From NCBI RefSeq assembly GCF_032854445.1, contig NC_088303.1, positions 19,165,501 to 19,229,500 of the forward strand: a stretch of 64,000 nt of DNA, read 5' to 3'. The notes beneath the pieces were generated by a model. It had not been told where the DNA came from, searched no databases, and saw only the letters and a list, made by a program, of their open reading frames with translations. This document shows, piece by piece, positions 21,666 to 64,000 of the stretch. The position numbers and the translations under genes were made by a program. The stretch comes from Liolophura sinensis. Its lineage: Eukaryota; Mollusca; Polyplacophora; Chitonida; Chitonidae. Every line of letters starts with the position of its first letter. Within the stretch, counting starts at the first letter, position 1.

Positions 21666-23180
21666 AGAATATATAGTTTGAACAGTGACAAATAAAATAT
21701 GTGTGTATTGTTTATGTGAATTTGTAGCAATAGTGCATTAAAATGGTGTAGTTTAGTACCAATACTGCATTAAACTGGTGTAGTTTAATACTCTGTACAA
21801 CTGATACCGTCAGAGAGCACGGTTTCTGTTGTCAAAGATTGCGGAAAGTGATCGTCTTATAAGTGATCAGTCAGGCTCCAAAGATGAATGTGCTTTCTCT
21901 GATTCCCATTACAATAAACAAATATCATTTTTTATTTCCAATTTATCGATTTTTGTTTGATCTTCATGATTATCTAGAAGTTGCGTCATGTATCTTTAAT
22001 TTATGTGTGGAATATTCAACACGTGTGTGTAGACGACAAAATTCCAGTGTTCGGTTGTCCCATGCCAACATCTTGCTGAAAATTTGCGTGAAAACCCCAA
22101 TGACTCATTCAAACATCCAGTTAATTGTGCATGCAAACTTCAGTCAATGAGAACTTTCCCCTGAAGGAAATGATAATGTCAAACGTTGCCTTGGTTAGGA
22201 TCCGTAATATAGCGAACACTTTTTTATTCCAATTAAAGTGTGTTTTACCGACTTCTGTTAAAATATAGGTCATTTCCATATAAAATAACAAAATATCTCA
22301 AATAATACAATAAGTTTAGAATAATGTGTAGAATAGAATAATCCTGACAAGCGTGTGGCCAACAGAGAACATAATGGTTATATAATCATAGAGCGGGAAA
22401 GTATTAGAACGGTGAATCGGGAAGTTGATTGATACTTTAATGTCTTGCAGCTGAGCATAAGGAAAGTATAGTCTAATGCATGTGTAAAGTGTCTACAGGG
22501 TGGGACGTTATATCTGTCTCTGGTGTGCATGGCATTTAGTGAGATGTCCATGTATAGCCGTTGAAACAGGTTTACTACAAGACACCATGACCCAAACAGG
22601 GCTAGTTTAAAATGATACAAAACCTCATACATGTGCATTAGATGCACGCATAGACCTATACGTTCTCTTTGTATGAAGAAAGACAACGTCGGATAAAGAG
22701 GGGAGACAACTTTTTTTGTAGGTGCAATAATGTACGTGTATCTCATTTAAACTGTACATAATTCCAAAATTTGTCTGTTGTATAATGAATTGGGGCGTTT
22801 AACTGTGTATTTCGTTAATTTCTGCTGGCCTATACGTACCCCTTGCGGTTGTCATTCAATCGCTGCGCAGGATACAGGGACTGCCTGTTCAAGCCGGGTT
22901 TCAGACTGGGAATTTGTAGATTCCAAGCAGTGCTCTCACTACTTGTGCATTGGGCCTTGGTGACATGCAATAGGCAGACGTTGACGCTTTTTAAAGTGAA
23001 AGATAGCACTTGACCAATGTTTATGTCCACTGAAAGACTACCATTCCAAAGCATCTTAAACCGGCATTAAATCATTTTTTACATTTTTTTTTCAGCCCAG
23101 CTACTGCACGTCTCCAATAATGAGAGCAAGGTGACATCACGTTTACTCTAGCTCTCTAACGTCGAATGTATAAGCATCTA
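21666..23180. other. Intergenic, no feature recognised
   Basis: About 1.5 kb between the 21-bp array and a SINE fragment. Open frames here (up to 122 codons) are unlike any family I know and lack coding character. Confidence 0.5.
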
Positions 23181-23184
23181 AGAT

Positions 23185-23372
23185 CGCTGTGAGTTCGTTC
23201 AGCTCATGCTTGCTCCCTTTCCAGTAGTACGTTGACAGTTCTGGCAGATTGTCGTGGGTTTCCACTGGGAACTGCCCTGTTCCTCCAACCATAATGCTGG
23301 CCGCTTCGTACAAGTGAAATATTTTTCAGTACAGCCTAAAACACCAATCAAATGAATAAATAAAAGAAATAA
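23185..23372 (+). mobile_element. SINE family A, diverged copy
   Basis: Contains 'gctgtgagttcgttcagctc', 'agattgtcgtgggtttcc', 'ccataatgctggccgc', 'aagtgaaatattttt' and 'aaaacaccaatcaaatgaat'. The 5' head is missing. Confidence 0.85.
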
Positions 23373-23609
23373 ATTAAATTTACACATTTCTCATGAAGTT
23401 TCACTTACATGACCGCTTTACACTCTGAGGGAAACCTGCACACCTTACGAAGGGTGATACAGAACTAACCAATGAAGTATTCAAACAGGCGTCCTCAGTG
23501 GCCAGGGGCTAATTGTCTTTAGGCTTGGATAAATCGGTTAGTTGAAACAGTACGCTGCATTGTGGTGAGTTCACACAAACTGCTTCATAGGCACCAAGAA
23601 TAGACAACA

Positions 23610-24450
23610 TCGATGGCCTGTTATCAACAGGAAAATTGGGGAACAGCCAACCTGGACTGCATAATATCGATATCATGGAAACCTGGAAGTAACCAACATT
23701 GATTGTCGGTTATTTACACCTGGAAAACCATCAAAATCGTTTGTCTATTATCTACACCAGTGAAATTACAGAACAGCCAACCTGGATTGCCTGTTATCTA
23801 CATGAGTGAAACCCGGGAACAGTCAACATGGATTGCCTGTTATCTACATAGGTGAAACCCAGGAATAACAAACACTGATTGCCCGTTATCTACACGAGTG
23901 AAACCCAGAGAATAACCAACCTTAATTGCTTGTTATCTACAAAAGTGAAACTTGGGAACAGCCAACATTTATTGCCTGTTATCTACGAGTGAAACCGGTG
24001 AACAGCCAGTGCTGATTGCCTGTTATCCACATAAGTAAAACCCAGGAACAGCCAACACTGATTGCTTGTTATCTACAAAAGTGAAACTTGGGAACAGCCA
24101 ACATTTATTGCCTGTTATCTACATGAGTGAAACTGGGGAACAGCCAACATTGATTGCCTGTTAACTACGAGTGAAACCTGTGAGAAGCTAACACTGACTG
24201 CCTATTAACTACATGAGTAAAACCTAGGGGCACCTAACATTGATTGTCTGTTATCTACATGAGTGAAACCTGAGAACAACCTTAATTGCCAGTTACTTAC
24301 ACAAGGCAAATCAGGGAACAGCTAACACGGATTGTCTATTATCCATATAAAGCAAACTCAGGAACAGCCAATGCTGATCTATACCAGGAAAGCCAGGGAA
24401 CATCAAAAATCAACTACCTGTTATCTACTGGAGTGAAACATTGACTGTCC
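23610..24450. repeat. ~46-bp tandem repeat, about 16 diverged copies
   Basis: The unit runs approximately 'gattgcctgttatctaca' + 'tgagtgaaacccgggaac' + 'agccaacatt'. Intergenic, between the dipeptidase and CFAP20. It ends about 250 bp before the CFAP20 poly(A) candidate. Confidence 0.9.
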
Positions 24451-25379: not shown

Positions 25380-27371
25380 TTACTTCGCCATTCCGGCTGC
25401 TGGTTTTTGAACAGGGAGATAAAGCTTGAATTCCGCAGGCAATTCATCTTCTGAGTATAATCTGTCCGAAAAGTAAACCCTCCTGATACGGCAGTTGGCA
25501 TGAATCTGAAAGCAGAAAAGTAAAAGAAATGTTAATATCAAAAGTATTCAAAAAATATACTACACTTTCATTATGATATTATTGATATTATGATATTATT
25601 GGTGAAATTAGCCATGTAACTGAAAACAATCATCCCTAAGTCACAATGATTTTATCCCATTATGTTAACTATTGCAAAACTGTTATGAGATATATTGAAA
25701 TACATTTTAAAAAAATTTAGGGGTTACAGCTTATTATAAGGAAAAAAAAAACATTCTTACCTGTACTCTAAGCGTCTCAATGTAGTTTGTTCCATAAGCT
25801 CTTCTCGTAAAGTCTGACAAGTTAAACTGAATCTGGTTCCAGCCATCATCCAGTCTCATGGGCATGGTACAGATGAAAGGTTTGACACGTGTCGTGCTTT
25901 GGTAATTGCTTGCCCTGAATCGCCTCTTCACGTTCTTATCGTCTAATACCTGCAATTCAATTAAACAGAAGGCTAAAGTGGTTAAACTGTACTATATAAA
26001 AAGGGAAACAAAAAAAGAAAAAATAGACAATACAAATTCTTTATTTAATCTCGTAAAAATCTGCTGCTAAGTAATATAGACAATGCTACACACCTGAACT
26101 TCAAATGTGAAATATTTCTTCAAGTTCTTGATGATCATCACCAAAAATGGAAGTTTGATGCCAAGTGTCTTCTTTTGGTCTGCTGGACATGTGATAAATG
26201 TGGTGCTGAAATAATAAGCATAATTAGTTAGTATGGTATCAGACACAAAAAATCAGTAATAATTAAATTGCATACATAAATATATACATAAATATTAGAT
26301 TTGAATTTAGTTTCATATTTAATATATTAAGAAAGCAAGATGCAAAGCAATAATAAAATGCATGTAGAAGAACCATGAGGAATTATGAACTTCTTTCCTA
26401 CACGAAGACGATATTAATTGTCAAGTACTAACTTAAGCTATAATTATTTCCGCGGTTTTTCTTACCTGACATTTGTTCCAACAATCTCTAAAACTAAGGA
26501 CTGGATATCATTGTCAGTGATTCGTTTGATGTGCCCATTTCGGACCTGAAAAATGGACAAAAATGACATTTTATTACGATAACTGAGATAACTAAATAAA
26601 CCGTGAACAAAGCTAAGCTGTGATGGCCAAAACATCATTCAAAAGCTGTCCTCCCACATTGCCATGCTAAGTAGGTCAAGTCATCCAAACATGGCGGCCA
26701 GTCCCGATATGGTTGAAATTTTAACATTCCTCATTAGTTTAACACTTGACAACAGTGTCACTCAAAGCCTTTAAAAACATAAATTAATACCGCTGTTGCT
26801 TGATGTGTTCACTTGATTGATTTGTTCCATCTTTAACGAAAACCTGGCTCTAAAATATTAAACAATTCGCAATGCAACATTCACACTTAACAGTAAAATT
26901 GCAACAACAACATATAGACATTTTCAGAACAAAAGTATCGGTTAAGCGTGGTGTACAAAATGTCGTATTTTGGTACTTTCTTTGAAACCATGCCACATTA
27001 GAACAAACTTTTACAGATTACGTCCATTGCTGGAATGGAATAAGAATTACTCATGAGTTGCACACACGTGACATGAGACGCTGACAGTTCCGAATGAAAT
27101 TCAAATTTCAACAAACTGATCGGTGACATCTATGGTCTCAAACAATCAAACAAGTATCTCAGACAATATATGCAATGATAGTCCTGATAACAGTTAACTT
27201 TAAGGTAGTTCTATGATTGTGTAAAAAGTGTAAAACACTAACGTACATGACACACAGCGAGCGTGCGTGCAAACACGTTTTACTTACCGTCTTGTCCCAT
27301 ATTTGTAATGGTTTGCTACCGATACTGTAAAGTATGGACAAAAATCCACTCTGAAATGTGTTCTTGAACAT
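25380..27371 (-). CDS. CFAP20: Cilia- and flagella-associated protein 20, 5 exons, 196 aa
   Basis: CFAP20 (DUF667 family, formerly C16orf80, BUG22 or GTL3) is a small, very conserved protein of the axoneme and centriole that seals the inner junction of doublet microtubules. Exons on the minus strand: 27371-27288, 26545-26466, 26205-26094, 25949-25761, 25505-25380; total 591 nt with all phases matching. The start [18 protein letters not shown] is diagnostic. Later blocks include [53 protein letters not shown] and [11 protein letters not shown]. The tail reads [20 protein letters not shown], the last residues being the least conserved part. Human CFAP20 is 193 aa. The fold is an all-beta domain with no membrane segment. 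Its neighbours CSNK2A and CCDC113 match the human neighbourhood. Confidence 0.97.
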
Positions 27372-27550
27372 TTTCACGAGCTTGTGTGAGTATGTAATCC
27401 TACAACTGCGAAAACTAGTTTGATGAACTTGCACTGCCCTGCGTTGGTTTTAAGCTCTACGCCTGTGAGTTGTCAAGTGAGGACGTCGGTCTGTTGTAGC
27501 TTCTCTTACCCTCGTTGCCAAGAGCCCAACAGGAGCGCGTAGTAATACCA

Positions 27551-27563
27551 GTTGCTATGCGAC
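27551..27563 (-). promoter_or_regulatory. Weak X-box-like site upstream of CFAP20
   Basis: GTTGCTATGCGAC, 180 bp before the CFAP20 start. The left half matches the RFX half-site GTTRCY, while the right half TGCGAC fits RGYAAC at only four of six positions. A true site is plausible for a ciliary gene but unproven. Confidence 0.3.
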
Positions 27564-28321
27564 TCCAGTTAAACTTTCTTTTAAAATCACATCTTTATGT
27601 TCTCTTCGACTCTATACATTCGTGAAGATGTGTTATATAAAACCGATCATTAAGATATAGTTAAATAATCTCACACCGACTTGTTTCTGGGTGTAACCTG
27701 GGACTATTTTTTTGGCCATCACAGTAGGTCATTTCCTTGCTGGGTTGTGACGCGTCACTTTGCTTGGCACCTTTGTTGCTCAGGTAATCTGCGGCCTTGA
27801 TTCAATTGGCTACACAAATATCATTGTTATCCTTAAATAGTGTTCGCAACTTCCATTCATATTCCATTGAAGTGGTGTGTTGTGTCTGAGGCACGCGTAG
27901 AAAGCATTATACTGAACTACTGTTTTTCCTTTGAAGCTGCCGCTCACCTTAGTTGCGTTCAAAGCCGGTTATTTTAGCCATTTATATCCTTGTACCACGT
28001 GTATATAGCTTGTTACCGTACTAAGGCATATAGGCATGCACTGTGCTGAAGCCATAGCTGGTCTAAGAGATATGCCAACATTAACACAACACAAGGAAAG
28101 GAAAGAATAATATTTGAATTTAAACTATATAAATAAGTAAATAGATTAATAAATAAGTAAAATTATAAAGAATTAGGAAAGAATTAAAAGGAAATTTTTT
28201 GACATGTCTACGGAGGCACACGTTCATGATAAAGGCCCACTGCTTCAGACCCATAATCGTGCCATGCATGCATAGGCTTAAAAATAACAGTCTCAAGGCT
28301 AAAAAAAAAAAAAGAAGAAGA

Positions 28322-28572
28322 GTGAGTGAGTGAGTGCTTGGGGTTTAACGTCGTACTCAACAATTTTTCAGTCATATGACGACGAAGGAATCATTAGGGT
28401 GCATGTACGCGTAATGTGCCTCCTTGTTGCAGGACGGATTTCCACCGCTCTTTTATTTAGTGCTGCTTTACTGAGACGACTTACCGAAGGCAAGTAATCG
28501 GCCCCGCCCGAGCCATTATACTGATACGGGTCAACCAGTCGTTGCACTATCCCCTTCATGCTGAACGCCAAG
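28322..28572 (-). mobile_element. SINE family B, reverse copy
   Basis: Reverse complement of the family B body: (GAGT)n tail, 'ggggtttaacgtcgtact', 'ttcagtcatatgacgacga', 'ggacggatttccaccgctct' and 'ctgagacgacttaccgaagg'. It ends with the variant 5' head 'cttcatgctgaacgcca', shared with the copy at 5248. Confidence 0.9.
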
Positions 28573-29107
28573 CGAGAAAGTTACAACTTCCTTTTTTAAA
28601 GTCTTAGTTGTGAAAAAAAGACGAAGAACAACAAAAATTATATATAACTAACGTAGATGTGTTTTATCAAATCACGTAGGCTGATTTATTAGTCGCACTG
28701 TTGCCTCTCTTACGTCGTTAAAATGTGTAAAGCTGAATGTAAATTATAATCAATGTATACGCCCATGATGGATATATACAAGCTTGTCTGCATGGGTGCA
28801 CCAATGCACAGCGCCCGCCTTGCACCCATAAGCATCTCCCTTGCATGTAAAATAGTACCAAAGCAATATAGGCCTATTATTGTGTTGGTTTACTCGGGAA
28901 AGGCGTGTCTCACATGAAATAGCCTACATGCAAATTATGACTCCAAATGAAGTCCATGCATGCCCATTCTCCAAAATATACGTGTACGGAATATATTTTA
29001 AATTAAAATTGTGGTATATATGTATAGGTGTACACATGGTAAATTAAAATGGTGGAACATGTATACAAGTGCATCCACGCATATTGCACATAACAATAGG
29101 CCTGCCA

Positions 29108-29282
29108 CTGGTACCAGCTCATGCTGACTTTCTCACTGGCCATATGTAAGAAGGTTTTCCAGCAACTTGCAGATGATCTTAGGGTAGAGCCCGGTTTCCT
29201 CACAACATAATGCTGGGAGCCGTCGTATATAAGTGAAATATTCATGAGTACAGCGTAAAACACCAATCAAATAAATGAATAA
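29108..29282 (+). mobile_element. SINE family A, diverged copy
   Basis: Contains 'ccagctcatgctgacttt', 'taagaaggttttccagcaac', 'cataatgctgggagccgtcg', 'aagtgaaatattcatgagta' and 'aaaacaccaatcaaataaat'. The head is missing. Confidence 0.85.
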
Positions 29283-31110
29283 ACATATTAAGAAATTGGC
29301 CAGGTATTGTGCACCGCGTTAAAATGCTGTTTGTAGTATAGCTGTTATATAGCAGCATAAATATAATATATATCACATTTCCTTGATTGCCTGTATGTAC
29401 TACAGTGCAAGTGGAGATTTTTGAATGTATATGTTTGATTATATTAATATAGAAGAAGGTGCGTATAGATTCATGCAGGGTTTTTGTCTCCAGTCTCTAT
29501 AATAAGATGGAGGTAAATTATTCATGTATAAACATAAAACCACAAATCGCCCTCAGATACAGACTTGTGTTATATTTGTCCATATACACTGCATCACATC
29601 TGTAAGGCAAATTCACTGATCGGTGTGACGTGGTTGGTAAGTCGACTATTATACTTGTGTAAAGGAAAGGCCTCTAAAAATCGAGGTAGATATCACCAAA
29701 TAGATCGCTTAAAACTATACATGAATATACATTGGGTTTTTTTTTTTTAGAATTTAGTGCAAAAAATTAAAGGCGTTCAAACATTTGAATTCTATGGACC
29801 ATACGATCGGAGTTTAGGAACTCTCGCGTCACAAAAATTTTTTTCAACTGTCATAATGACACTGAATGTTGAAATAACTCGATGAGTAAAAGATTGCTGA
29901 AAGAATGTTCTCAGAAATTCATTCCTTCTGGAAATATTAACATTTCTGAACATCTGGAAAAAAAGGTGATGTGACGTCAGAGTTTCTAGATACCGTCAGT
30001 ATAGCCCTAAAAGCCCACTATAGTATTTAAATATTTGAATGCCTTTCATCACTCTTCAAAAAATCTGAAAAAAATAAAAGATAAATGAAAGTATTATTTC
30101 TTATAGTTTTCAGATGATGAACCTTCATATTTTAGCTTTCATTTACTTTAACCTTACGAATGAGATGAAGGAATTTTCTTAAATACTGCATTCTATAAGC
30201 AATAATTTCAATGTTTGCTAGCATGTCAAACTCGTTTGTCGATCACCTCGTTGTTGTACATGTTATGTCAGAAAAGTAACTTTTTTGAGCCGTTAAGCTG
30301 AACTCATTCTATGGTATAAACTTATAAACGAAAGTTTGACAAGATGTTTTCATTTGAATAAAAATGTTTCCAATAACATACATATATATGAAATGATTAT
30401 GTATACAATCATCATATCGTCATAGGGCCTATGTATTTTTTTTATCCCATCATGGAAGTTTAATTCCATGACAGCGGATGGTCTTAATTAATTAGATCTG
30501 TCTGTTCCTCTGTCACTCCTTGTTGTCCGTGTAATAACTGTCAACAAAGCCCGATTTTCATAAAATCGTACGTCCAAGTTCACTTTATGAAACCTCATAC
30601 ATGCAAATCAGGTTTGGAAATCATCCATCCTGATCGGTGCATAAGTTTTGCATAATTATAATCACTCAACGATTTTCAAATGTTTTAGTCGTTGATTTCC
30701 GTGCAATAATTGCCCCATGTATGTCGTCTGATTTGCATTAAAATTTGCTGTGAGCAGGTGCTTTTTGTACATGTATCCTCAAATCCAGTTCGATCTCAGT
30801 GTAGTTTTGCATATTTAACGATTTCATTGATTCTAATTGGTTATTGCTTTCCGTGTAATGACTGCGTCAATTATTGTCCGATGTTGATAAAACGTTCGTG
30901 GTTCAAGTTTGAATGCCATCCTGGGCCATGCGAATAATTTTTATACATATTTATTGTGAGAAAAAATATATATATATATGTCGCACTCCAGATTTACTCT
31001 TATCTTAATGTATTTACCAACAATTAAACAATTTAACAATTATATAATTGTGTAGGCCCCTATATACAAATATATACAGAGGTTACGGTGGATATTTGTT
31101 CATCTCTGCG

Positions 31111-31124
31111 GTTGCCATGGTAAC
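31111..31124. promoter_or_regulatory. Perfect RFX-type X-box palindrome
   Basis: GTTGCCATGGTAAC matches the X-box consensus RYYNYYWWRRNRAC at every position. It is intergenic, 3.7 kb upstream of the CFAP20 start and beyond the 3' end of CSNK2A. Function is inferred from the motif only. Confidence 0.5.
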
Positions 31125-32930
31125 TAAATCCCCCACCCCACCCCACCGCAGGTATCCAAATCAGGTTTAGCACTATAATTCACCCAAATGTTTATTTGAA
31201 TAAAAATTCTTTCAAAATTGTTTTAAGTTGAATGTGGATTACATGAAATGTATCCATGCACTATAAACCATGAAGTCCTTCACCTGAGGCTTGGACTTCA
31301 AAACTGGAGGAAACCAACTGGAGGGAACAATAGTCAGGTCAGCTTGAACTCCTAATGTTATTTTGTGTATGTTAAATGTTATTTTATGCGCCCTTGGTGG
31401 ATTTTTTGGATAACAGGATTGCGGGTGCAAACAGTGTGAGAATACGCAGGACCATGCATAAAATGCGCCACACAAATGATGCTGCCAAGGTTTTATCTGC
31501 ATTCGTGGTATTTCCGGGTATTCAAATAGTGTCTTTCATACATGCATGCTGGATTATCCATGTTCTCCACGTTCGGTATACGCTGTGCTGGAGTCTGAAT
31601 CAAATGAAGCATGCATACTTTTTCTTTTAAACTCTGTTCAGCCTCTTGAAGTAGACTTCTGCTTTGGGCATTATGTTGCAGCCGTATATACCGTTTGGAA
31701 CAGACACGTGCTTCGGCGTCTCTGAATTACCTTGCCCTGCACGCCAACTGGATTCTGTATATTTACATATATATATTCCCTTCCACGAAGTATATATTTT
31801 TTTATACAATGCACAGCAAAGACAGCCTGTCCAATCTGTGCGGTGCTGTTATATGTCCCAACATAGAGCAACGTCGGCCTTCTGTTACATCTGAAAGCTT
31901 GTTTTCAGACTAAAAAGTTTAAATTTTGTTCCCCTCATCAATACTGTCTTAGGGAAAATGTGTCCAAATTTCAATTTCCATTACCAAAAACTAAGCATCG
32001 TACACAGTTTTAAATTTTTGTAAAAGGCTATTTGTCAAATTCAATAAGTTGGATGTGAATAGGGCAAGTCTGTTTCATCAATCTTGTGTGAACGCAACTT
32101 AACTTGTTGAATTGTAAAAGGTTTGTAATAAACTTGGTATTTCATTATTCAAACACTGAGAATTCTACCTAAAGCAATGTACAATTTCTTTATATTTGAT
32201 TGGTGTAACACAAAAAAAACGTTTTCATTAATATGACATTAGTGGATTCAGCAGAGCGAAGTCCCCAAGTGCAATCCCCGTCGGAGTGGTTTGCCAGAAA
32301 CACCATATAACATCCCAACTTACAGCTGCAGTCAAACCAGTGCGAGCTGGAATGGACCACGAGAGGCCTTGATCAAGGTTTGATTGGCTGTGGTGACTCT
32401 TCAAGCGAAAGTCTCATGTGATGTAAAACGATTAACAAACATACATTTCTTAAGAATATGTATTAGTCTTCTGTTCCAATTTACTGTGAAATTTGACTGT
32501 GATGTTGAAAATACTCCATTATTTGACTCCAGCATGATGTAAACAATGTCAGAAATAATCCATCACCCAGTCATTGACAAAGGGCGACCTTTCAAAAGTT
32601 CTTTGGTAGACCCACACTTAGAACTAAAACTAGCCTTCCCTTTACCTACAAGGAAAGGGGTGTAAGGAATCCTCCATTATATCAGTCTTCTTGGATAAAC
32701 TTCTGATGGTTTGTCCGCTATTGGTTTCTGAGACGCCTAATGAAGATAATTTATTTTTCTAGAATGCACACCTTTTCTCTTTGGACTCATATTACAACAA
32801 AATTAATCAAATATTTCTTTATTTCAGCCAGACAGTATTGTAAAAGAAGGGGAGGCCGAATTAAGATTGGATTGAATAAGACATCAGAATTCCAAATCCA
32901 AATTCTTACCGGTATAGGCCACATACCATA

Positions 32931-32936
32931 TTTATT
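32931..32936 (-). promoter_or_regulatory. Candidate poly(A) signal of CSNK2A
   Basis: AATAAA on the minus strand, 1.14 kb past the CSNK2A stop codon. A second hexamer lies at 32818-32823. The 3' UTR (about 32.8-34.07 kb) contains no intron signal I can defend. Confidence 0.4.
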
Positions 32937-34073
32937 ACTGTTACTGTGAGTTGCTGAAATGGATGGAATAAAATATCACAAACAAACAAAAAAAAAAAAA
33001 AACACATCTATTGTAGTACTGTACAAATGTTACTTTTATGACTGCAATGCGTATAAGGGGACACATCTGAGAACAAAATGAGGGGAGAATACAGGGAAAC
33101 TGTTGACCTGCCTAGCTGAAATCCACAACACAAACCAATTTGTGGTGAAGATTTCCAGAAATAGATACGATAATTATGTAACATTTATAATGTCAATGTA
33201 ACACGGATCTATCAGCTTACTATTAGCCCCTTTCATTTATAGACGCGTGGCATTCAACAGCACTGTGAGTCTGCGTAAGGTGGAACATTGGCACCATCGT
33301 GGTTGCCATGGTCACTAGAACACTGTGATGTCATGACATCCACTGTTCATGAATATTCATGTCTGCCCCAGAAAATGTTACTTTTGTAAACCTGTCTGGT
33401 TTAACATCTCCCCTCTCCAGCACTGTGTAGGACATCTCCTTGGCTTAATTCACTATCTTAAGGTTCATTTTGCCAGTAATAATATTAATTATATTTATAA
33501 TAATAACAATAATAACGATAATAAAACATAGTTATGTTACTGCTAATTTGAATTCTACAAAGAAGCTGAAGATTTGTTCACTTTCAGCTTTACCACTAAT
33601 TATGAGTCATTTTTTCATTTCTTGACTATACTTCAGTCTGTCTTAAAAAAGGAAACTAAATAAAAAAATAATCAGACCTACAGACTGAAATAAGATAAGT
33701 TATCGGCAAAATTACATAAAATGATGATGTCCAAAAAGAGTGTTGTTGGCACCAATTTCACCCAAAGAATTTCTTAAGTCTCTTCGTAAGGGAGTGGAGA
33801 CATGATAGCTAGTCCAACATTGTGTAGACCACAGGTTTGGCTTTACACAGCTGGTCACCTGATGAATGCCAATGAGAGGGCCTTCAGTTCACCAAGTCCT
33901 GTCACAACACAGTGACCTCGGCTCCCCAACAATAACACAGCCACACGACCTCCAGGCTTTTGTTTGTGGATACGTATCCATCCGGACTTTCAGTCTGAAC
34001 ATATAGTGGATATCAAATGATAACGCCAAGCCTTCCAGATCTGGTGAATGAATTCCTAGGTCCTAGAGTAGCC

Positions 34074-49990
<15,917 letters not shown>

Positions 49991-51194
49991 TCAACAATAT
50001 GTTACCAAATTGGAACGAACATTTTTAAGCACAATAAAGCAATTTCTGTACAACATGAAATTTATAGGTTTCAGTGAATATTTACTGAAGTACACACTGT
50101 CTACTTGGCATACATGATGTCTTTCTTGTAGGCAAATTGTAATGGAACATAGAGAAGAATTGGAACTTGTTAATGAAACTTCAGAAAAACCTGTTAAATG
50201 GTTTTATAATAATAAACTGTTGAATATTGATTTGAAGTTCTGCTCCAAAAGGTTTCGTTCTCACATGTAATTCAAAAACTTTTATTCTAAATTCCATATG
50301 GAAGTTGGAACTTAAAAATCTTTAGAGTTTTTTATACAGCAATGACAGTCTTTTAACAGATTGTGTAAACCTCCAGTGCATTTATTAATTCAGTGTTTTA
50401 TTATCTACACATTAAAAATAGTAGGCATCAGGGCATATCTTACTAAAGACACACACAAAAAAGAGGATAATTGTATGCAATTATAACAGAAATATATGTC
50501 CAAGTATGCTACAACTTATGATTACACATACAGTGCACGGTACAAACAGAACTGTCTGTTTGCACAAAACCGCTACTATCTGTTCAAACAAAAGTCAGGA
50601 TTAGAGAAGCGTACTGTAGTTCTGATTTTGTATTAGTGTCAAAAAGATGTCTGAATGCTTGGTTAACATTCATCTTGCCATATTTTGCGGCATAGGTTGT
50701 AGTCCATATCATCCACTGGCAGAGGTAGTTAGGAGGGGAGTGTCCTGGAATGTGTTCAAGCAACAGTAGATGTAAACTTCTTTCAGGTCTTGTTAGAAAA
50801 TTACTAAAGCAACAAATTAGCATCTCTTTATTCTGTGTAATTACACAGATAGGCCAAAAACGCGTACATGTGATGTCTGAATGGTACAACGGTGTACAAC
50901 TTCTATATTGAGACCGTTCACATCCAAGCACATGCCTTTTCATTAGCACAGTTGCAGGCGTGAAAATATTGTCTAAACAACATGTCCTATACTATCCTTG
51001 TTGACCTTCAGTATCCATACGCTGTGCAGATTAGTCTGTCGTCTTAACACATTAACCAAATTCTGGTACTCCTGCTGAACACAGCATCAAGCCAGTCATC
51101 GAAATGTCCCCAGAAGTGCTTTGATGTTCTCCTTAGGGTCAAAGTCCAATTTTTCACAGAGCAACACCTTACACAGTGAGAGTCAGCGCATTAT

Positions 51195-51208
51195 GTAACC
51201 ATGGCAAC
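51195..51208. promoter_or_regulatory. RFX-type X-box palindrome in CSNK2A leader intron
   Basis: GTAACCATGGCAAC fits the RFX consensus GTHNCCWWGGNDAC at all positions. It lies 3.7 kb upstream of the CCDC113 start codon and within the predicted first (non-coding) intron of CSNK2A. Confidence 0.4.
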
Positions 51209-51995
51209 TTAAATCATAGCCTTTTCATCTCTGTACAAGCAGCATCACATGTACTGTTCCTAAACATGTCTTATGACAAGTTGTCAGTATGAAAACATAC
51301 AGGCCTAAAATGATATTCATTGTGTTCAGGTTAATGAGAAGTAGGAGCCCTGCCATACACCCTTCCAGCACAATGTCAAGATGTCTTAATGACACACTGT
51401 TGTCTTGTATGAACAGCCAACATGAAATTTCATTTGATATTCTCTTCTTGACATTTATAAAACATGAAACTATAAATTACAACACATGTCAACGATTTCA
51501 GTCTCCTGGGAGACCAGCAAAATTAGAAGCCCATCCTCCAAATATTTGATTCAACAATCTATTCCTTGTCAAGCCTGACATTACCCCCAGCCTAGCAATT
51601 CCTCCAGTGACAACAGAGTGCGTTCTGTGATTCAAAGTATGTCACCCACTGATGGAATTTGGATGTGTCGCATTGTCTAAGCGGCATCACCACTATTTTC
51701 TGAAGAAACGTGGATCATTAAGTGTATAATCTTGAACATGAAATTACCTCCCTAGGCAGTAGAACATATAACTTAGAGGCTTTCATGGGCGTATCAACCT
51801 ATTGTGTTCTGTCCTTCGCTACCAACATACACATGGAAGGCGGACGAGGCAGTTTCCTGTGCAACATTATTTTGAGGTTGACATGCGGGAGCAGCCGCCG
51901 CACGTATCAGCCGACTGGATAGGCAGGCTTCGCTTGGGCTCCAATTTTATGACCTGAATGTAAAATGAATATGACATAGGCTTTCACAAACTTAC

Positions 51996-52100
51996 GTTTC
52001 CGAAGTCAAATGATCTAATTTAGCCAGGAAAATTGAATAACTTCACCGGTTGTGGTCAGAAAACTCTCTCATTTCCAATCAAAATGGCGGACCAAGAAAG
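51996..52100 (-). promoter_or_regulatory. Predicted CSNK2A promoter and non-coding first exon
   Basis: On the minus strand, CGCCATTTTGATTGG (near 52077-52091) contains a YY1-type site and an inverted CCAAT box. About 80-95 bp later, AAAC|GTAAGT gives a strong splice donor at 51995. This arrangement (core promoter, short untranslated exon, intron to the acceptor at 49966) would suit CK2 alpha genes, which often have a non-coding first exon. Transcript evidence is needed. Confidence 0.45.
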
Positions 52101-53145
52101 GCTTTGGGGAGCTTTCGGATCGAGGCTAAACATAAATCGCACTTTCTGATAGAGTTAGCTCCCCTGGCTAGTTGGAAAAGTTGTGAACTTGCTTTTGGCA
52201 GTCACCCACTGTCTCGGATCTGAATTATTTTAACGACGGTCAAAAACTTTTGCTTGATATTCCATCTTCTTGATTTTCCCTCAACTAGTCATAGATAATA
52301 CTTAAAAATACGCCAGCAACGTATAATTATTTCGTTTACATAATTAATATTGTTACGCTACGGGACATCTTTTTTTACCTGTTCTGGGACGTGCATATTA
52401 GATCCTGCACATTATCGTCTGTCAGTCATTGTTTCTAATCCATAAAAAATATCCGGTACTATTTGTACAACTACTAAACAAGTCAATGTTAGGTAACAGG
52501 ACAACCCTGGGTCAAACCTCTCTTACCTCTTTTAAATGACTGATTGTGTGTTAATATGATTTCGGTGTCCTTTAGTACAGACACACGCTTTATTTAATGG
52601 TGGACAAGATGTATAAAAACCGGTGTATCCATATAGGCGACGGTGCAAAGTGTAAATTCTTCTATTGGGGTCACTAATTGTAAAGCATGTGTGTTTTAAC
52701 ATGTATTTCAAAAACATGAACAGGAAGTCACATAATGTGACTTTCGGACTGCAACGTGGGACCCCGGCCATAATAGATCTTCAGCTGCACATTGTTCAGG
52801 ACATATTGTCGAGCCGATCATAAAAATATGGTTACTTACACATCGGCCATAAAAATGCTGGTCAACCATGGCTAAATTATGGTTACCTGGAGAGTGACCA
52901 TAAAAATAGTCCAAAATATAAAATAACTATGACCGACAATAAAAACATACACGCTCTTCAAACGTTGATATCTTCTTAACTATTAACTTGGAGTTCAATA
53001 ATATTATATATATGATGTACAATCTTGGCTTACTTTTTCCCTTATAATATCAACTTACGCTTTCACTCCTTACATATCTATATTCAGACCATTGGGAATG
53101 GCCTTCAGTTTGTCAGAACTGTATATTATGAATGTAATAATTAAT

Positions 53146-53283
53146 TTATTTGTTTGGAGTTTTATATGCGCCGTGCTCAAGACTATTTCACATATACGAC
53201 GGCGATCAGCATTATATGGTCGGAGGAAACCGGGAAAAGTCCCGAGGAAAACTACGACCATACACAGGTTGCCGACAGAATGC
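53146..53283 (-). mobile_element. SINE family A, reverse copy
   Basis: Reads 'tatgcgccgtgctcaagact', 'atttcacatatacgacggcg' and 'ggaggaaaccgggaaaagtc' then 'cgaccatacacaggttgc', all reverse-orientation family A. Confidence 0.85.
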
Positions 53284-53470
53284 TGCCTGCATGTTTTAAA
53301 TACGCATGTATATATAGTTTGCATGGAGTGGATATATATTTACGTGTATATACGTTTATAAGACATACTAAACCTATATGGATATTCAACATTAGTGACC
53401 ATGCCGGCTGTATTACGTCCATACCAAGACAGTCTTTCAGATCTGAGTTCTGATTAAGACAATTTGCCGT

Positions 53471-53634
53471 AGGCGTTCGTGGGAAGGTCTGTGAGCAGCC
53501 TGCGGATTGTCGTGGGTTGCACCCGCGTTCTCTGCCCGGTTTCTCTGGACACCCATGATGCTGGCCACCGTTGTATAAATGAAATATTCTTGAGTAGGGC
53601 GTAAAACACCAATAAAATAAATAAATATTAAGAA
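53471..53634 (+). mobile_element. SINE family A, forward copy
   Basis: Reads 'gtgggaaggtctgtgagcag', 'cctgcggattgtcgtgggtt', 'atgatgctggccaccgttgt' and 'gaaatattcttgagtagggc' then 'accaataaaataaataaa'. With the previous copy it forms an inverted pair about 190 bp apart. Confidence 0.85.
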
Positions 53635-53999
53635 TAAAACAATTTGGTTTGAATCAGATTGAATATATAGGTATAAAATAAGGTCTGACGGTTCACCATA
53701 CCATACTTCCTAACCATTTCTTAGTTTATACCTTTAAATTTTCCATGCCTTATGCACCGCCACGTGGTTTTTAATAGATCACGACAGGGGAGGATGTATC
53801 TTTTCGTCGACAGTTTTGAAATACAACTACATGACCGGAAATAAATGTAATTATTGATTGATTGAATTAATCCAAATTGTAAAAATTCGGAACAGCCATT
53901 TGTGTGCAGATTCATACAAACACACATGCATTTGTTATTTATGCATAAACACATAATGATTGCTTCGTAGTACCTATCCATGTCTCATAATACATTGAG

Positions 54000-54003
<4 letters not shown>

Positions 54004-54081
<78 letters not shown>
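54004..54081. repeat. (TA)n microsatellite
   Basis: About 39 uninterrupted TA units directly before a SINE. Confidence 0.98.
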
Positions 54082-54084
<3 letters not shown>

Positions 54085-54103
54085 ATTGTTCTTTCTTTGT
54101 GAG

Positions 54104-54392
54104 CGGCCCCGATGGCTCAGTTGGTAGAGCATCCACTTCAGGGCGGTAGATCGAGGGTCAATCCTTAAGACACACACCTGACCCGTATCAGCATAATGGC
54201 TCGGGCAGGGCAACTTACTTGCCTTCGGTAATTAAGTCGTCTCAGTGAAGCAGCACTAAGATAAAAGAGCGATGGAAATCCGCCCTGCAACAAAAACCAC
54301 ATTACATGCATTCTAGGGACTCATTCGTCGTCATATGACTGAAACATTGTTAAGTAGGCCTACGACATTAAACCCCAGGCACTCACTCACTC
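54104..54392 (+). mobile_element. SINE family B, full-length copy with tRNA-like head
   Basis: The head carries an A-box-like 'tggctcagttggtagagc' (54113-54130) and a B-box-like 'gatcgagggtcaatcc' (54149-54164). The body is shared with the copies at 5248 and 28322, and the end is a (CACT)n tail. It is not a functional tRNA gene: no acceptor stem closes around the head. Confidence 0.9.
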
Positions 54393-54912
54393 TAACTATA
54401 GGCCTACAGTATGTGGTCGTCATCTTTTCTTTTTATATATACATGTACATTTAAAATGATGTATATACATGGATGCATCGAGGTCCTGATGAAGTCTTAT
54501 GGCGAACAGCGATAAATGACCCTTATACCGTATACCCGACACACTGCACGCGAGTTGCTTCATACCGTACATACATGTAACTTTCGCCAATGCGTTGCTC
54601 GACATGAGTTAGCATTGGCATTCCGCAAACTAAGTCCAGTCCAAGCAAAACAAGTCATTTAATCGCCATCAAACTCATGCTTGAATTTGCTAACAACAAT
54701 TAACAGTGCTGTTTCGTTAGAAAATAAAAAAAGAACATTAGAAATTTAATGTTTTCTCTCTGTATGTTGTGATGGATAGTATACACTGTACAAATAGGTG
54801 TACATTTTATGATCTTTTTCGATTTAGTCAACGGAAATATCCGACCTTGAACGGAGTTTAACGAAGCCAACAACAGCGCCATCTGTCAGAGGTGATAAAT
54901 AGAAGAACAGAC

Positions 54913-54926
54913 AACTTCATAGCAAC
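54913..54926 (+). promoter_or_regulatory. X-box-like RFX site upstream of CCDC113
   Basis: AACTTCATAGCAAC matches RYYNYYWWRRNRAC at 13 of 14 positions and ends 11 bp before the CCDC113 ATG. Genes for motile-cilium proteins are commonly controlled by RFX factors through such proximal sites, so position and gene class support each other. Confidence 0.5.
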
Positions 54927-54937
54927 AAACAAGCAAT

Positions 54938-57900
54938 ATGGCGGACTCGGAGACACAAAGTATCGACACGAGCAATGAAACGGGGGAAGATCCTTTACAA
55001 GAACTATCTGATGACCAACTGTACAAACTTTTGGCTGACACATTGTAAGTATATTGACAATATGTGATGTTTTTTGTTTTGTTTGGTTTCGTGCATGATT
55101 TATACAACATACGGTCTGGTCAACCCAATGCAATATAAAGAAAATGCACAGTGAGAAGATTTTGCAGACTTAGCAAATCAAAGCTGAGAAGTACACATCA
55201 GTCATCATGCATTAGTCTGAGTACACTGCCTGTTGGTTGAGGAATGTTTGGATACTACATATTCATGGCTACTCAACCTAGGTATCCAAATTTGGATACG
55301 CCATATTCATTGCTGCTCCACCTTGGTATCCAAATATTCCTCAACCAACAGTCAGTGTACTCGTACTAGTCATACATCATTTTACAATTGTCGCTCAGTA
55401 CCATACTGCATTTCTTCTATCACAATAGATTGTCAATTGCAATAGTTAAATTCATCTTAAATGGGTTACATTTTACTGTTACACAGTGAAAGCTTCTCTA
55501 GAAAATCTGCATTTTAGTTGAGGGTGTCACTGACTGTCTGATTATTTGCTACCAAAAGCAGTTTTTTCCCAGTGATTCTGTACCCTGTAATTTAATCCAT
55601 TATGTTGATTTAACTTATACATATATTTATATGTATATAAATAATTAATATATACATATATTTAACTATACATATATGTAGATTTGAAAACTGATTTTCA
55701 GGTGTAACTTTGTGTGTATCCTTGTACACCAAAAAATATCTGGATGATGAAATGACTCTAGTATCAGAAATCACTTTTGACAAAACAGTTCAGTGATGAG
55801 AAATCGACCATTTTAAGCATGTTTGAAGGCTAATGCATGTATGTAGATCTGAGGCAGGCAGTTAGTATTATTTTTTTTGCAAGTGGATGGTAAGACGTAG
55901 ACAAATTTGGGATTTATTACCAAAGTATGGCATCTACCTTAATTATAAATAAGTGAGGTATTCATGGTAAATAGGCTTAAACAGTTCAGTGCGTAAGTAC
56001 ATGTAAACATTAGTCAGAAGACATTTACTATGCATAGCGTGTACACCATTCTGATGACAACTTTCTAATCTGTTAAACATTTTGAACTTTCACAGGCATG
56101 CAAATGAAGTCCTTGCAGCTGAAACACAGATGTTTGAGAAGTTTCTCAATAGAGTGGAACCTAAAGATGCTGGAGGGGTACATCAGTCAACCCCATTCAC
56201 TGGTATGGCGTCAACACAGTCAAACCATGAGAATGTTAGAACTGTTGGTAGGAAGCGGTCGAAGTCTCGCAGCAGTAACATGGACAGAAGTCTCCGTCTG
56301 ACAGCTGAACAAAAATGTGACATAGCACAGAGGGAAATTGAAGAACTGAGGGAAGAAATCGACACCCTTAAAGAGGAATCTGAGAAAGTTTTAGATACCT
56401 ACAAGGTTAGAACTATTATATTTACAAATACATGTATCTACACCTATGTGCTAATACACATGTAAGCACCAATCAGCTAGATGAATATATAATTAATGAT
56501 TTGCTACTTAATTGTTTTTTATTTATATTACTGATATGAAATGTGTTGTCTTGTCTTTGAAGACAACTGATGATATAAACATGGATGCAATAAAAACAGT
56601 TGTTATTCCATTTCAGGCCATTATGGAAGAAGCAGACCTCAGATTGGCTGAAATCAAAAAAGAATCCTATGAATTTGAGAGAGACATTACGAAGGGAGCA
56701 GTGAACTCCAGGACAGGAAAAGTTGTTGCTGAGAAAGTTATCCGTTACTTTGAGGACAAGTTACGATCTAGGGTGAGTTGTTGTGGTTTTCTGTGCAGCT
56801 ATATATAGTGCATCAAAGAATTTGAAATGTAAATCTAGGTCTCCCGTCCTCTGGACATTTCCTGATAACTCTTTAACTCTATTAATCTTGTCTCACTTGT
56901 TTTTGCAGGATACATTAATTGAGAAGTTACGTCTGAAAAATTCCACCTTGAAAGTTCAGAAGAAGAAGTTACATCTTCAGCTGAAGCAGGTTTGAGTATT
57001 TCTAGTTTCGTGTTTGATTGTAAAACATTTCTCTAAAAGTTTCAGTGTTCATAGAATATTTTTATACATATCTATATTGAAATACAGACAGGATTGAAGA
57101 AATACTGAATTTACAGTAAGTTTATCTTATAGTCAATCTAAGGTCTTGATTCTCTGTTGTAGAAAGAAGAAATGGGCGAAGTTCTCCATGAGGTTGACTT
57201 TAACCAGCTGAAGATTGAAAATCAGCAGTATTTGGAGAAAATTGATGAGAGGAATCAGGATCTTTTGCGGCTGAAACTGATGGCAGGAAACACATTACAA
57301 GTGCTCAACACTTATAAGGTAAGGGCATTTCTATATCAAAACACTTAACAGGTAAATTCCATGCTCTAATTCCATAATATTTCATTTTTATATGGATCCC
57401 ATCAGTAATTGCATTGTTTTATCCACATGAGTAAAGTTCTTAACCGTGCATTTTAACTTGCATTAAGATGGTGGAACATCGTGATAGTATGAAAATACAT
57501 GAATATATGATACTAGCATACAGTTTGATTTTTTGCTTGTTTCATTGTTAGAAAGATTTGATTCACAATATTGATTTTTTGTAGAAAAAGCTGCACACAT
57601 TGACCATGGAGTCTGAACGACTGAAGTCTGAAATTTCATCCAGAAACAATCTGTTGTGGCGTATTGATTCTGAGACAGATGCTGTAGAGCAGGTATGATT
57701 GAAAAAAAGAAAATATCAGCTGTACTATTAGTTAGAGAACACAGTTTTATACTTGGTCAGGTACCTTACCCAAGGCTGCAGCAGGATATACCAGGAATCA
57801 GATGTGCACATACAGCCTTCATTCTTCAGTCAGGCATTGAAGTGAATGAATGAATGGTTATGGCTTAATGCTACTACAGTAACATTGCAGTCAAACCTTT

Positions 57901-58822
57901 TGAGGGTCATGTATACTGAGCGAGCAGGCAACCTCACTCTTCAATATTTTGAAGCTTGCAAATAGCTGTAACTCTTTTTTTTTTTTTTTTTACAGGAGAG
58001 GTCAAAAGCTGAAAAGATCAACCGCAAGTTACGTCAGCAGCTGGCAGACTTCCGAGTTCCAGAGGTGATGGAGTATGTTAACGAGAAGGCAGATCTGTAC
58101 GAAATCCAGAAGAAAGTCAAGAGCTGGGAGAGGAAAGTGGAAATTGCAGATGTAAGTCATATAATAATATTAAGATTGTGTTATGATGCAAGCCAAATGC
58201 CATGTGATTAGGTAGTTGTTAAAAACTACGGCAAGGTACATGCATTATGAGGGTGTTTCAGATGAGACTTCTTTATGATGTTTGGGTCAGGTATGTACAA
58301 CATAAGTAAATGTTAATGTGCATGGTTGCACTTTTTGTACACAGTAGTGTTTTGTTCAAGGTTGAAGATGTATCTTGAGGACTGGTTTAAACCTTTATGT
58401 CACGAACTGCCTGGCAAGATTTTCCCTGCTTGATATTTCTTCTATATTCATGTTATAAGTAGATAATATCATTTTCTGTTTCTCATATTGAAAAATATTA
58501 TCAATTCAGTCCATAACAGTCAGGTTAAAAGATGGACAATATTTTGTTGAATTATTCCTTGATCTCTGTGATCAACTGAGTTTTGCTCAAAATATGTTGA
58601 CTAGACATTTAGAAGTTGCTAGATACAATTATTATTGTCTCCAGCTCACATCTATCTTATTCTTCACAAATCAGATTTCAAGGTTTAACAGACAATTGGA
58701 ACAAATTTATTAATTTGTAAACTCTGTTTTAGATGGCTTTGAAGACACACAGGAAAACCTGGAACTTGATGCAGATGGGGAGTAACAGCATGACGCAGTG
58801 GAGAATGATGGAAACTGCTTAA
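54938..58822 (+). CDS. CCDC113: Coiled-coil domain-containing protein 113 (CFAP263), 8 exons, 387 aa
   Basis: CCDC113 is a coiled-coil protein that partners CCDC96 (CFAP184) on the axoneme near the radial spoke 3 and nexin-dynein region, and is also reported at centriolar satellites. Exons: 54938-55044, 56096-56405, 56617-56772, 56909-56989, 57163-57318, 57585-57692, 57996-58151, 58733-58822; total 1164 nt with all phases matching. Blocks shared with the human protein (377 aa) include ETQMFEKF, RKRSKSRSSNMDR, AIMEEADLRLAEIKKES, EKLRLKNSTLKVQKKKL, HEVDFNQLKIEN, GNTLQVLNTYKKKLH, KINRKLRQQLADFRVPEVM and KSWERKVEIADMALKTHRK. Heptad-rich helices run from about residue 105 to 365. The N-terminus is acidic (ETGEDPLQELSDDQ). 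The start ATGGCGGAC has a good context and is preceded by stops. Four exons end on blocks of 156 or 108 nt, all phase 0 after exon 2. Confidence 0.96.
55219..55362. repeat. 37-bp imperfect inverted repeat with internal palindrome
   Basis: Arm 55219-55255 pairs with 55326-55362 (two mismatches). The loop holds the 18-bp perfect palindrome GTATCCAAATTTGGATAC at 55282-55299. The left and right halves also show a direct repeat ('catattcatggctactc' and 'catattcattgctgctc'). Located in CCDC113 intron 1. Confidence 0.9.
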
Positions 58823-61984: not shown

Positions 61985-64000
61985 TTAATCAAATGTCTGA
62001 TCAAGTATTTCCTGATTTTCTTTCTGATGAATTTCACCAATGCCTACAGCAGGCAGGCCGAGAACTCCCCTGCCAGCATACATCAGTTTTACTCCCACGA
62101 TGTTCTGAAAGCGAGGATTGATAAATGACCAGGCACCCATGTTGCGCTGTTCCTCTTGACTCCACATGAACTCTGAAGCTTTAGGGTATTTACTGACCTC
62201 TTTCTGCAGGGCAGCAGCAGGGAAGGGACACAGTGACTCCAGTCTGACAAAGGCAATGTCTTCCCTTCCTCGTGCCTCTCGCTCCTTGAGTAAGGTGTAA
62301 TAGTGCTTCCCTGAGCAGAAGATGAGACGTTTGACCTGACTGGGAGTCACATGAGGGTCTCCTAGAACATGTGAGAAGGAGGTGCCAGGAGACATGTCGG
62401 CCAGTGTGGAGACAGCGGCAGGATAACGTAGCAGAATCTTCGGGGCGACCATCACCAAAGGCTTTCTGTAATTTCGTACAACTTGCTGACGAAGGAGGTG
62501 GAAGTACTGGGCTGGAGTGGATGGATTAGCTACCTGGAAATTCACATTATCTCCATCTACCCCGTCCTCTTCACTATCTGTCATCTGTAAAAACCTCTCC
62601 ATACGGCAGGATGTGTGTTCTGGCCCTGCACCATCATAACCATGTGGCAGCAACATCACGATCCCACTCTGTAGCAGCCATTTGTTCTCACCTGACGTTA
62701 TAAAGGTGTCTATCATGATCTGGGCACCATTGAAGAAATCCCCAAACTGAGCTTCCCAGATAACAAGGTTGTTGGGGCTTTCTAAACTCATCCCATACTC
62801 AAAGCCCAACACAGCTTCCTCTGAGAGAACACTGTTTGCCATTTCCAAGAAACCCTTCTGGTCTGGAATTGTGTTGTTGAGAGGAATGCATATTTCATCA
62901 GTGGACTGATCAACGAGCATGGTATGCCTCTGACTGAAGGTGCCCCTCCCCACATCCTGGCCGCTGATACGCACATTGAACCCTTGACAGAGCAGAGAGC
63001 CAATAGCCAGTGCTTCCCCTGTTGACCAGTCAAGGTTTGCCCCTTCTTCAAGTTTCTGGCGTCTCCTATCTATATGAGTCTTCTGAATAGTTGGGTGCAC
63101 GCTAAAGGATGGAGGAAGCTCTACAGACTTGGCACCGATGTACTTAAGCAGGGATTCATCTACCCCAGTGTCCCATGTCGTCAACTGGTCAGAGGCCTGA
63201 ACACAATCTGACCACTGACCAAGGAGGTGATACTGTTTTACTGGGTTTCCAAGCTGGCTGAACTCATGTACCAGCATATTGTTCCACTCACTTACATTTT
63301 TCAGCAGGTCTTCCTTAGAACACAATCCTTCAGGAGACTAGTTGATCTGCATACAAATCAGGCACACTTTTCCTGCCTCTTATAGCACCGTACATAAGTG
63401 GCTGTGTGAATGATGGTTCATCCATTTCGTTGTGACCAGATTTTCTGTAGCACACCAGTTCAATGATCACGTCCTTTTTAAATCTCAGCCGGTAAGCCAT
63501 AGCTATAGATGTGGCCTTGAGCACATCCTCTGGAGATTCTCCATTTACATGAAGCACGGGGCAGGGCATTCTTTTAGCCACATCCGAGCAGTACAAAGAT
63601 GATCTGCCATAGTGTTCCTCTGTGGTATATCCCAGCTGATTATTCACAATTAGATGCACGCTACCATTCACGGAGAAATGTGGACAGTTAGCAAAACTAA
63701 ATGTCTCAGCGATAACTCCTTGGCCAGAGAATGAGCCATCCCATGGACTTGTACGCAGACGGCCTTGTCAGACGGAGAAGAGGGATCCTCGCTATACTCT
63801 CCAGTCCTCACGGTCTGCTGTTTGGCCCTGGCTTTGCCCACAGCTACAGGTGAGACTGCATCCAGGTGGGATGGATTGGGTAGGAAAGACACATGTAGAC
63901 TGCAGCCATGGTAATCCAAGTTCACCGAGTTGTACAGGTGGCTTAGAACATCGCCAGTTCCTTGAACACCCGGTGGAAATTCACTTAGTCCCTTTGATCT
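61985..64000 (-). pseudogene. DHTKD1: DHTKD1-like 2-oxoadipate dehydrogenase E1, intronless, two frameshifts, 5' end outside window
   Basis: DHTKD1 is the thiamine-diphosphate E1 of the mitochondrial 2-oxoadipate dehydrogenase complex in lysine and tryptophan breakdown. About 670 codons are present without any intron. Frame segments on the minus strand: 64000 to about 63742 ([41 protein letters not shown]), about 63741 to 63333 ([55 protein letters not shown]), and about 63337 to 61985 ([79 protein letters not shown]-type block, [12 protein letters not shown]). One base is missing within VHG|DGSF at 63740-63742, and one extra base lies near 63331-63338, restoring the frame. Apart from these two changes the reading frame is open and conserved to the final TAA. 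The animal gene normally has many exons, so a young retrocopy is the simplest explanation. An intron-poor functional gene with consensus errors is the alternative. Confidence 0.8.

What the first reader, a model, noticed from the sequence alone, without database searches (positions are those of the whole stretch)
25380..58822. CFAP20(-) - CSNK2A(-) - CCDC113(+) block matches human 16q21
Three unrelated genes lie side by side with no other gene between them, in the same order and relative orientation that I recall for human chromosome 16q21 (CFAP20, CSNK2A2, CCDC113). Such survival since the bilaterian ancestor is unusual for non-duplicated neighbours. Two of the three are ciliary, and the CK2 gene separates them, with its large introns possibly hosting regulatory elements of its neighbours.
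Basis: partly seen in the sequence, partly recalled or inferred. Interest (0 to 1): 0.75.

Follow-up and report, generated by a model that had tools for sequence, protein, structure and literature searches.

The report
Ancient three-gene neighbourhood kept intact
Three neighbouring genes, two for parts of the cilium and one for a protein kinase, sit in the same order in this invertebrate as in mammals, most likely because both inherited the arrangement from the ancestor of bilateral animals; such kept blocks are a known kind, and this one offers a test of why gene order sometimes survives.

Summary
No second CK2-alpha was found in the assembly. A cattle gene table lists CFAP20, CSNK2A2, CCDC113 consecutively and a pig table lists the reverse; human strands are recalled. 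Four of five tested genes of that mammalian region lie on the same contig, against 0 of 2 control genes. Simulated shuffling within linkage groups leaves 0.016-0.06 strict triplets per genome. Inheritance from the bilaterian ancestor is the best explanation; recurrence in other phyla could not be tested here. Why the block was kept is open. Clues: the upstream sides of CSNK2A and CCDC113 meet in one CpG-normal interval, about 52-55 kb; and the only three strict RFX X-box places in 224 kb lie in the triplet's two gaps. The pattern was tuned to them, however, they lie 3.7-5.9 kb from the ciliary start codons, and a broader motif score shows no enrichment. A new member of a known kind.

The parts
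25380..27371 (-). CFAP20, 5 coding exons: 27371-27288, 26545-26466, 26205-26094, 25949-25761, 25505-25380 (stop included)
34903..49852 (-). CSNK2A (CK2 catalytic subunit alpha), 11 exons modelled, start codon at 49852; 3' coding end unresolved
54938..58822 (+). CCDC113 (CFAP263), 8 coding exons: 54938-55044, 56096-56405, 56563-56772, 56909-56989, 57163-57318, 57585-57692, 57996-58151, 58733-58822
27372..34902 (.). gap 1, between CFAP20 start codon and the modelled 3' end of CSNK2A; CpG-normal from about 26.5 to 31 kb
49853..54937 (.). gap 2, between the divergent start codons of CSNK2A and CCDC113; CpG-normal from about 52 to 55 kb
31111..31124 (+). RFX X-box-like palindrome GTTGCCATGGTAAC, 3740 bases upstream of the CFAP20 start codon
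33302..33315 (+). X-box-like GTTGCCATGGTCAC, in gap 1
51195..51208 (+). X-box-like GTAACCATGGCAAC, in gap 2; 1343 bases upstream of the CSNK2A start codon, 3730 bases upstream of that of CCDC113
27551..27563 (.). degenerate X-box-like GTTGCTATGCGAC about 180 bases upstream of the CFAP20 start codon; its score class is not above chance
45001..47000 (.). CpG-normal stretch inside CSNK2A intron 1 (observed/expected 0.71-0.99); 45018-45390 is locally repeated

Best explanation
The triplet is a block inherited from the bilaterian ancestor, not a chance reassembly (I put this at about 0.95). Of the two vertebrate CK2-alpha genes, CSNK2A2 kept the ancestral address, while the window protein is nearer in sequence to CK2 alpha (CSNK2A1). 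My preferred reason for the retention, inferred and held at about 0.4, is entangled cis-regulation: CSNK2A and CCDC113 face each other across one open regulatory interval (about 52-55 kb), so a break there would harm one or both, and distal elements in the gaps (X-box candidates) tie CFAP20 and CCDC113 to the CSNK2A surroundings. Shown: gene identities, order, strands, no second CK2-alpha detected, contig-level linkage with other genes of the mammalian region, CpG landscape, positions of the X-box matches. Inferred: ancestry, that CSNK2A transcription starts near 51.5-52 kb, any use of the X-boxes, any selection on the order. The confidence given is for inheritance plus some cis-regulatory contribution.
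For: Gene models. Mammalian order. CNOT1, USB1, CIAPIN1 and NUDT21 on the same contig C9, 4 of 5 tested, binomial 6.7e-5 for a contig holding 6.1% of the assembly; controls COQ4 on C13 and COA5 on C8. CNOT1 lies 1.4 Mb and USB1 8.8 Mb from the triplet here although both are close neighbours of it in the cattle table, so the surroundings were shuffled while the triplet was not. Chance expectation 0.016-0.06 per genome. CpG depletion, read as a mark of germline-methylated transcribed bodies (recalled), runs on past the CSNK2A start codon to about 51.5 kb and then gives way to 0.80-1.20 from 52 to 55 kb. Strict X-box places: 3 in 224 kb, all 3 in the two gaps, which are 5.6% of that stretch; flanks of the three share no longer repeat. 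CK2 alpha 715.5 bits against 667.7 bits for CK2 alpha' over nearly the same residues.
Against: COQ9, listed in the pig region, lies on C6. Only one invertebrate genome was examined. Start codons of CSNK2A and CCDC113 are 5.1 kb apart and no transcript data exist, so a shared promoter is unproven. The strict X-box pattern was shaped after seeing the three sites; with a broader pattern the surplus in the gaps is P about 0.0015-0.003 and with a general score it vanishes (14 against 12.5 expected at score 10 or more). All three X-boxes lie in 500-base bins of low CpG (0.39, 0.38, 0.27), outside the CpG-normal intervals. The CCDC96-like gene and the other CFA20-domain gene on C1 have no strict X-box within 200 kb in the listed part of the genome scan. 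Neutral retention needs none of this.
Confidence: 0.5

Rival explanations
1. Neutral retention: the block is inherited, but only because no rearrangement happened to fall inside its roughly 33 kb in this line or the vertebrate line; there is no functional reason for the order.
For: The ancestor is inferred to have had hundreds of blocks and some must survive by inertia (256 new blocks in the bilaterian ancestor, PMC8851819). The block is short here. X-box evidence is partly tuned.
Against: Mammalian neighbours of the triplet are scattered over about 25 Mb of C9, and one on C6, while the three stayed adjacent and in orientation. Vertebrates lost 84% of the new bilaterian blocks.
Confidence: 0.42
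2. A ciliary regulon block: CK2 alpha is a functional partner, co-induced with CFAP20 and CCDC113 by RFX in ciliated cells or sperm through elements in the gaps.
For: X-box places in the gaps; 1 of 100 shuffles of the window reaches the 6 strand matches seen; X-box pattern about 30-fold over its reversed control genome-wide (988/980 against 27/34); Csnk2a1 affects IFT at the basal body and ciliary length (PMC12237634, passage). Globozoospermia of Csnk2a2-null male mice is recalled.
Against: CK2 is a constitutive enzyme, needed in all cells; no expression data here; sites far from start codons and in low-CpG bins; no enrichment with a general score.
Confidence: 0.1
3. Bystander block: one or more of the genes carries distant enhancers of another gene, and the others are locked in as bystanders (genomic regulatory block).
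For: CpG-normal stretch within CSNK2A intron 1 at about 45-47 kb could be an element or a second promoter.
Against: None of the three is a developmental regulator; no neighbouring regulator was identified among the few flank ORFs checked; conserved noncoding elements could not be sought.
Confidence: 0.05
4. Independent reassembly or chance: the genes came together separately in the two lines.
For: None found.
Against: Expected 0.016-0.06 strict triplets per genome by within-group shuffling, fewer without groups; shared contig with other genes of the region.
Confidence: 0.03

Closest known systems
Ancestral bilaterian microsyntenic blocks (three or more orthologues, up to five intervening genes; Robert et al. 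2022, PMC8851819)
   Same: Three orthologous genes close together in a vertebrate and an invertebrate, and in this case strictly adjacent, collinear and co-oriented.
   Different: Presence in several species of each clade was not tested on the invertebrate side; whether this block is already in that paper's supplementary lists could not be looked up.
Mammalian CFAP20-CSNK2A2-CCDC113 region (human 16q21 by recall; cattle chromosome 18 and pig chromosome 6)
   Same: Same three genes, same order; same relative strands by recall.
   Different: Next mammalian neighbours MMP15/USB1 and PRSS54/GINS3 are not the neighbours here: DHTKD1/OGDH-family gene on the right, M19 dipeptidase exon on the left; USB1 is 8.8 Mb away.
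Divergent (head-to-head) gene pairs with a shared promoter
   Same: CSNK2A and CCDC113 are divergent and meet in one CpG-normal interval.
   Different: 5.1 kb between start codons; transcription starts unknown; about 50 kb apart in human by recall.

Membership tests
Ancestral bilaterian microsyntenic block (PMC8851819 definition) | Three or more orthologous genes | tested here: met
Ancestral bilaterian microsyntenic block (PMC8851819 definition) | At most five intervening genes in each genome | tested here: met
   None recognised in the window (10 of 11 ORFs); consecutive in the cattle table
[quoted passage not shown]
   Two mammals by published tables; only one invertebrate genome available
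Ancestral bilaterian microsyntenic block (PMC8851819 definition) | Set in conserved chromosome-scale linkage | tested here: met
   4 of 5 region genes on C9, 0 of 2 controls
Shared bidirectional promoter pair (CSNK2A-CCDC113) | Transcription starts within about 1 kb, divergent | tested here: inconclusive
   Divergent and sharing a CpG-normal interval, but start sites unknown and start codons 5.1 kb apart
Genomic regulatory block | Conserved noncoding elements spanning bystander genes around a developmental regulator | not testable with these tools
   No related animal genome held
RFX-regulated ciliary genes | X-box near the promoter | tested here: inconclusive
   Strict X-boxes 3.7 kb or more from CFAP20 and CCDC113 start codons; only degenerate sites nearer

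The most novel reading that the evidence does not exclude
The triplet is an ancient ciliogenic regulatory domain: RFX elements in its two gaps serve CFAP20, CCDC113 and the CK2-alpha gene between them, so that the kinase which tunes ciliary assembly is co-induced with axoneme parts, and this shared control has kept the gene order for over 500 million years.
Probability: 0.1. Interest if true: 0.7.

Novelty: new member of a known kind. Interest (0 to 1): 0.42.

Why it matters
Most bilaterian blocks were lost on the way to vertebrates, so a strictly collinear triplet shared by mammals and this animal is a good test case for inertia against shared regulation. It also shows that the CSNK2A2 locus, not the CSNK2A1 locus, is at the ancestral address of the CK2-alpha gene, while CK2 alpha (CSNK2A1) kept the more ancestral-looking protein: a clean example of address and sequence parting after genome duplication.

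Tried and rejected

X-box enrichment by a general score: 44 against a mean of 36 at 9.5, 14 against 12.5 at 10, 5 against 3.5 at 10.5, 2 against 0.75 at 11, with 8 shuffles each: not convincing on its own. Only the palindromic sites are unusual, and the strict pattern was written to include them; hence the small P value for it (1.7e-6) should not be taken at face value. The broader pattern gives 0.0015-0.003, depending on an assumed ratio of strand matches to places.

A tandem duplication of the end of a CSNK2A exon (three copies) was considered as alternative exons and rejected: copies 1 and 2 are as alike in intronic bases (17 of 20) as in exonic ones (29 of 36), there is no convincing acceptor, and reading through to the second copy's donor adds 61 bases and shifts the frame.

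Papers: no paper found that names the triplet as a conserved block. Searches: CFAP20+CSNK2A2+CCDC113 (2 papers, both livestock trait maps), microsynteny+CSNK2A2 (0), C16orf80+CSNK2A2 (1, listing only), ccdc113+synteny (0), CFAP20+CCDC113 (13, listing only apart from those read), CSNK2A2+synteny (6, listing only), and two broader microsynteny searches. Supplementary tables were not available, so the block may well be listed in one.

Full report
What was checked. The window is C9:19165501-19229500 of a 609-Mb assembly in 632 contigs; C9 is 37.3 Mb long. I did not identify the species. Translated searches and splice-site inspection gave complete coding models for CFAP20 and CCDC113 and a model of CSNK2A that lacks only a certain 3' end. 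CFAP20: five exons, 27371 to 25380. CSNK2A: eleven exons, 49852 to 34903, first intron 8.5 kb. CCDC113: eight exons, 54938 to 58822. Identities rest on comparison with solved structures: CFAP20 E 5e-124; CK2 alpha E 4e-219; CCDC113 279 bits against 46.5 bits for CCDC96. The other CCDC113/CCDC96-domain matches lie on C1, and weaker CFA20-domain matches on C1 and C7. For CK2 alpha, of 63 listed matches 10 are exons of this gene and the other 53 are at most 50% identical, as other kinases would be (115 of 156 candidates were scored).

Order against mammals. A cattle table lists KIFC3, CNGB1, TEPP, ZNF319, USB1, MMP15, CFAP20, CSNK2A2, CCDC113, PRSS54, GINS3, NDRG4, SETD6, CNOT1, SLC38A7, GOT2 (PMC7057717, passage seen). 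A pig table lists CNOT1, GINS3, CCDC113, CSNK2A2, CFAP20, MMP15, USB1 among others (PMC8227816, passage seen). These agree with the order recalled for human 16q21; strands in human (-,-,+) are recalled only.

Is it inherited? Five further single-domain genes of the mammalian region were placed in the assembly: CNOT1 at C9:17.78 Mb, USB1 at C9:28.0 Mb, CIAPIN1 at C9:5.2 Mb, NUDT21 at C9:3.27 Mb (its place on 16q is recalled), and COQ9 on C6, a miss. Two controls from elsewhere in human by recall, COQ4 and COA5, fell on C13 and C8. Four of five on a contig with 6.1% of the bases has binomial probability 6.7e-5. The linkage group is thus largely shared, yet its genes are spread over about 25 Mb: USB1, two places from CFAP20 in cattle, is 8.8 Mb away here. 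Against that shuffling, a triplet kept adjacent, in order and in orientation is expected 0.016 to 0.06 times per genome in a simulation with 24 linkage groups, 0.13 to 0.48 times if orientation is ignored, and 0.00025 times without linkage groups. Descent from the bilaterian ancestor is therefore much the best explanation, although only one invertebrate genome could be examined.

How unusual is it? Robert et al. infer 256 new blocks in the bilaterian ancestor, 84% of them lost in vertebrates; the vertebrate ancestor inherited 70 blocks, fewer than the 110-124 found in shuffled genomes under their loose definition (PMC8851819, section 5 part 1 read). Blocks as a kind are well known; a strictly collinear one that reached mammals is among the minority.

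An address that parted from its sequence. The window protein scores 715.5 bits with CK2 alpha and 667.7 with CK2 alpha' over nearly the same residues. By sequence it is nearer to CSNK2A1; by neighbours it stands at the CSNK2A2 address. The simple reading (inferred) is that after the vertebrate genome duplications the CSNK2A2 copy kept the neighbours while CSNK2A1 changed less in sequence.

Why was it kept? Three kinds of evidence were sought. First, the CpG landscape in 500-base bins: gene bodies are depleted (mostly 0.1-0.5), with CpG-normal stretches at about 26.5-31 kb (upstream of CFAP20, one bin of 0.49), 45-47 kb (inside CSNK2A intron 1) and 52-55 kb. The depletion continues past the CSNK2A start codon to about 51.5 kb, which suggests untranslated first exons there and a joint open interval with CCDC113. 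Local repeats cover 539 of the 3501 bases at 51500-55000 and 373 of 2501 at 45000-47500, so repeats within the 224 kb examined do not explain most of the signal; repeats found only elsewhere in the genome were not searched. Second, RFX X-boxes. The three best-scoring matches in the window lie in the two gaps (31111, 51195, 33302); in 224 kb they are the only places matching a strict palindromic pattern, which occurs genome-wide 988 and 980 times by strand against 27 and 34 for the reversed control, about one place in 570 kb by my count of 54 places in the first 100 listed rows. With a broader pattern (up to 2 mismatches; 10684 and 10572 by strand against 1857 and 1831) there are 4 places in 224 kb, 3 of them in the gaps (binomial 0.0007). 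Against this: the strict pattern was shaped after the sites were seen; a general score shows no excess at 9.5-10.5; the sites are 3.7-5.9 kb from the ciliary start codons and lie in low-CpG bins; and two family relatives on C1 have no strict X-box within 200 kb in the listed rows. Third, function: CK2 is not foreign to cilia, since depletion of Csnk2a1 increases IFT components at the basal body and ciliary length (PMC12237634, passage); CFAP20 and CCDC113 were seen at the axoneme (PMC6522010, passages).

Verdict. Observation confirmed; ancestry very likely; mechanism of retention undecided between inertia and entangled regulation, with a slight lean to the latter through the CSNK2A-CCDC113 interval. 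It is a new member of a known kind, of moderate interest.

Noticed in passing
35436-35822: Three tandem copies of 56 nt from the end of a CSNK2A exon and its donor site, 70-82% identical to the middle copy; probably decaying relics, not alternative exons.
   Followed up: partly
10934-24343: Several minisatellite arrays (periods 18, 20, 21, 30, 46 and more) and another at 2679-3292; every array scoring 200 or more lies left of 24.4 kb and none lies in the triplet. Some are open in several frames over 200-300 codons.
   Followed up: partly
13729-13881: Exon of an M19 membrane dipeptidase on the plus strand (Pfam E 2.6e-13); human DPEP genes are on 16q by recall, so it may belong to the same linkage group.
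   Followed up: no
61988-64000: C-terminal part of a 2-oxoglutarate dehydrogenase-like gene (DHTKD1 or OGDH family), minus strand, large exons.
   Followed up: no
L012:6765-7298: PSMD7 (proteasome RPN8) exon on C9 about 7 kb to the right of the window; human PSMD7 is on 16q by recall. Further right or left: a family-90 glycosyltransferase, an H2A histone and an alkaline phosphatase (10 of 61 flank ORFs submitted).
   Followed up: partly
whole assembly: The palindromic RFX X-box is about 30-fold over its reversed control in this genome, with runs of near-identical spacing on C1 that may be repeats.
   Followed up: no
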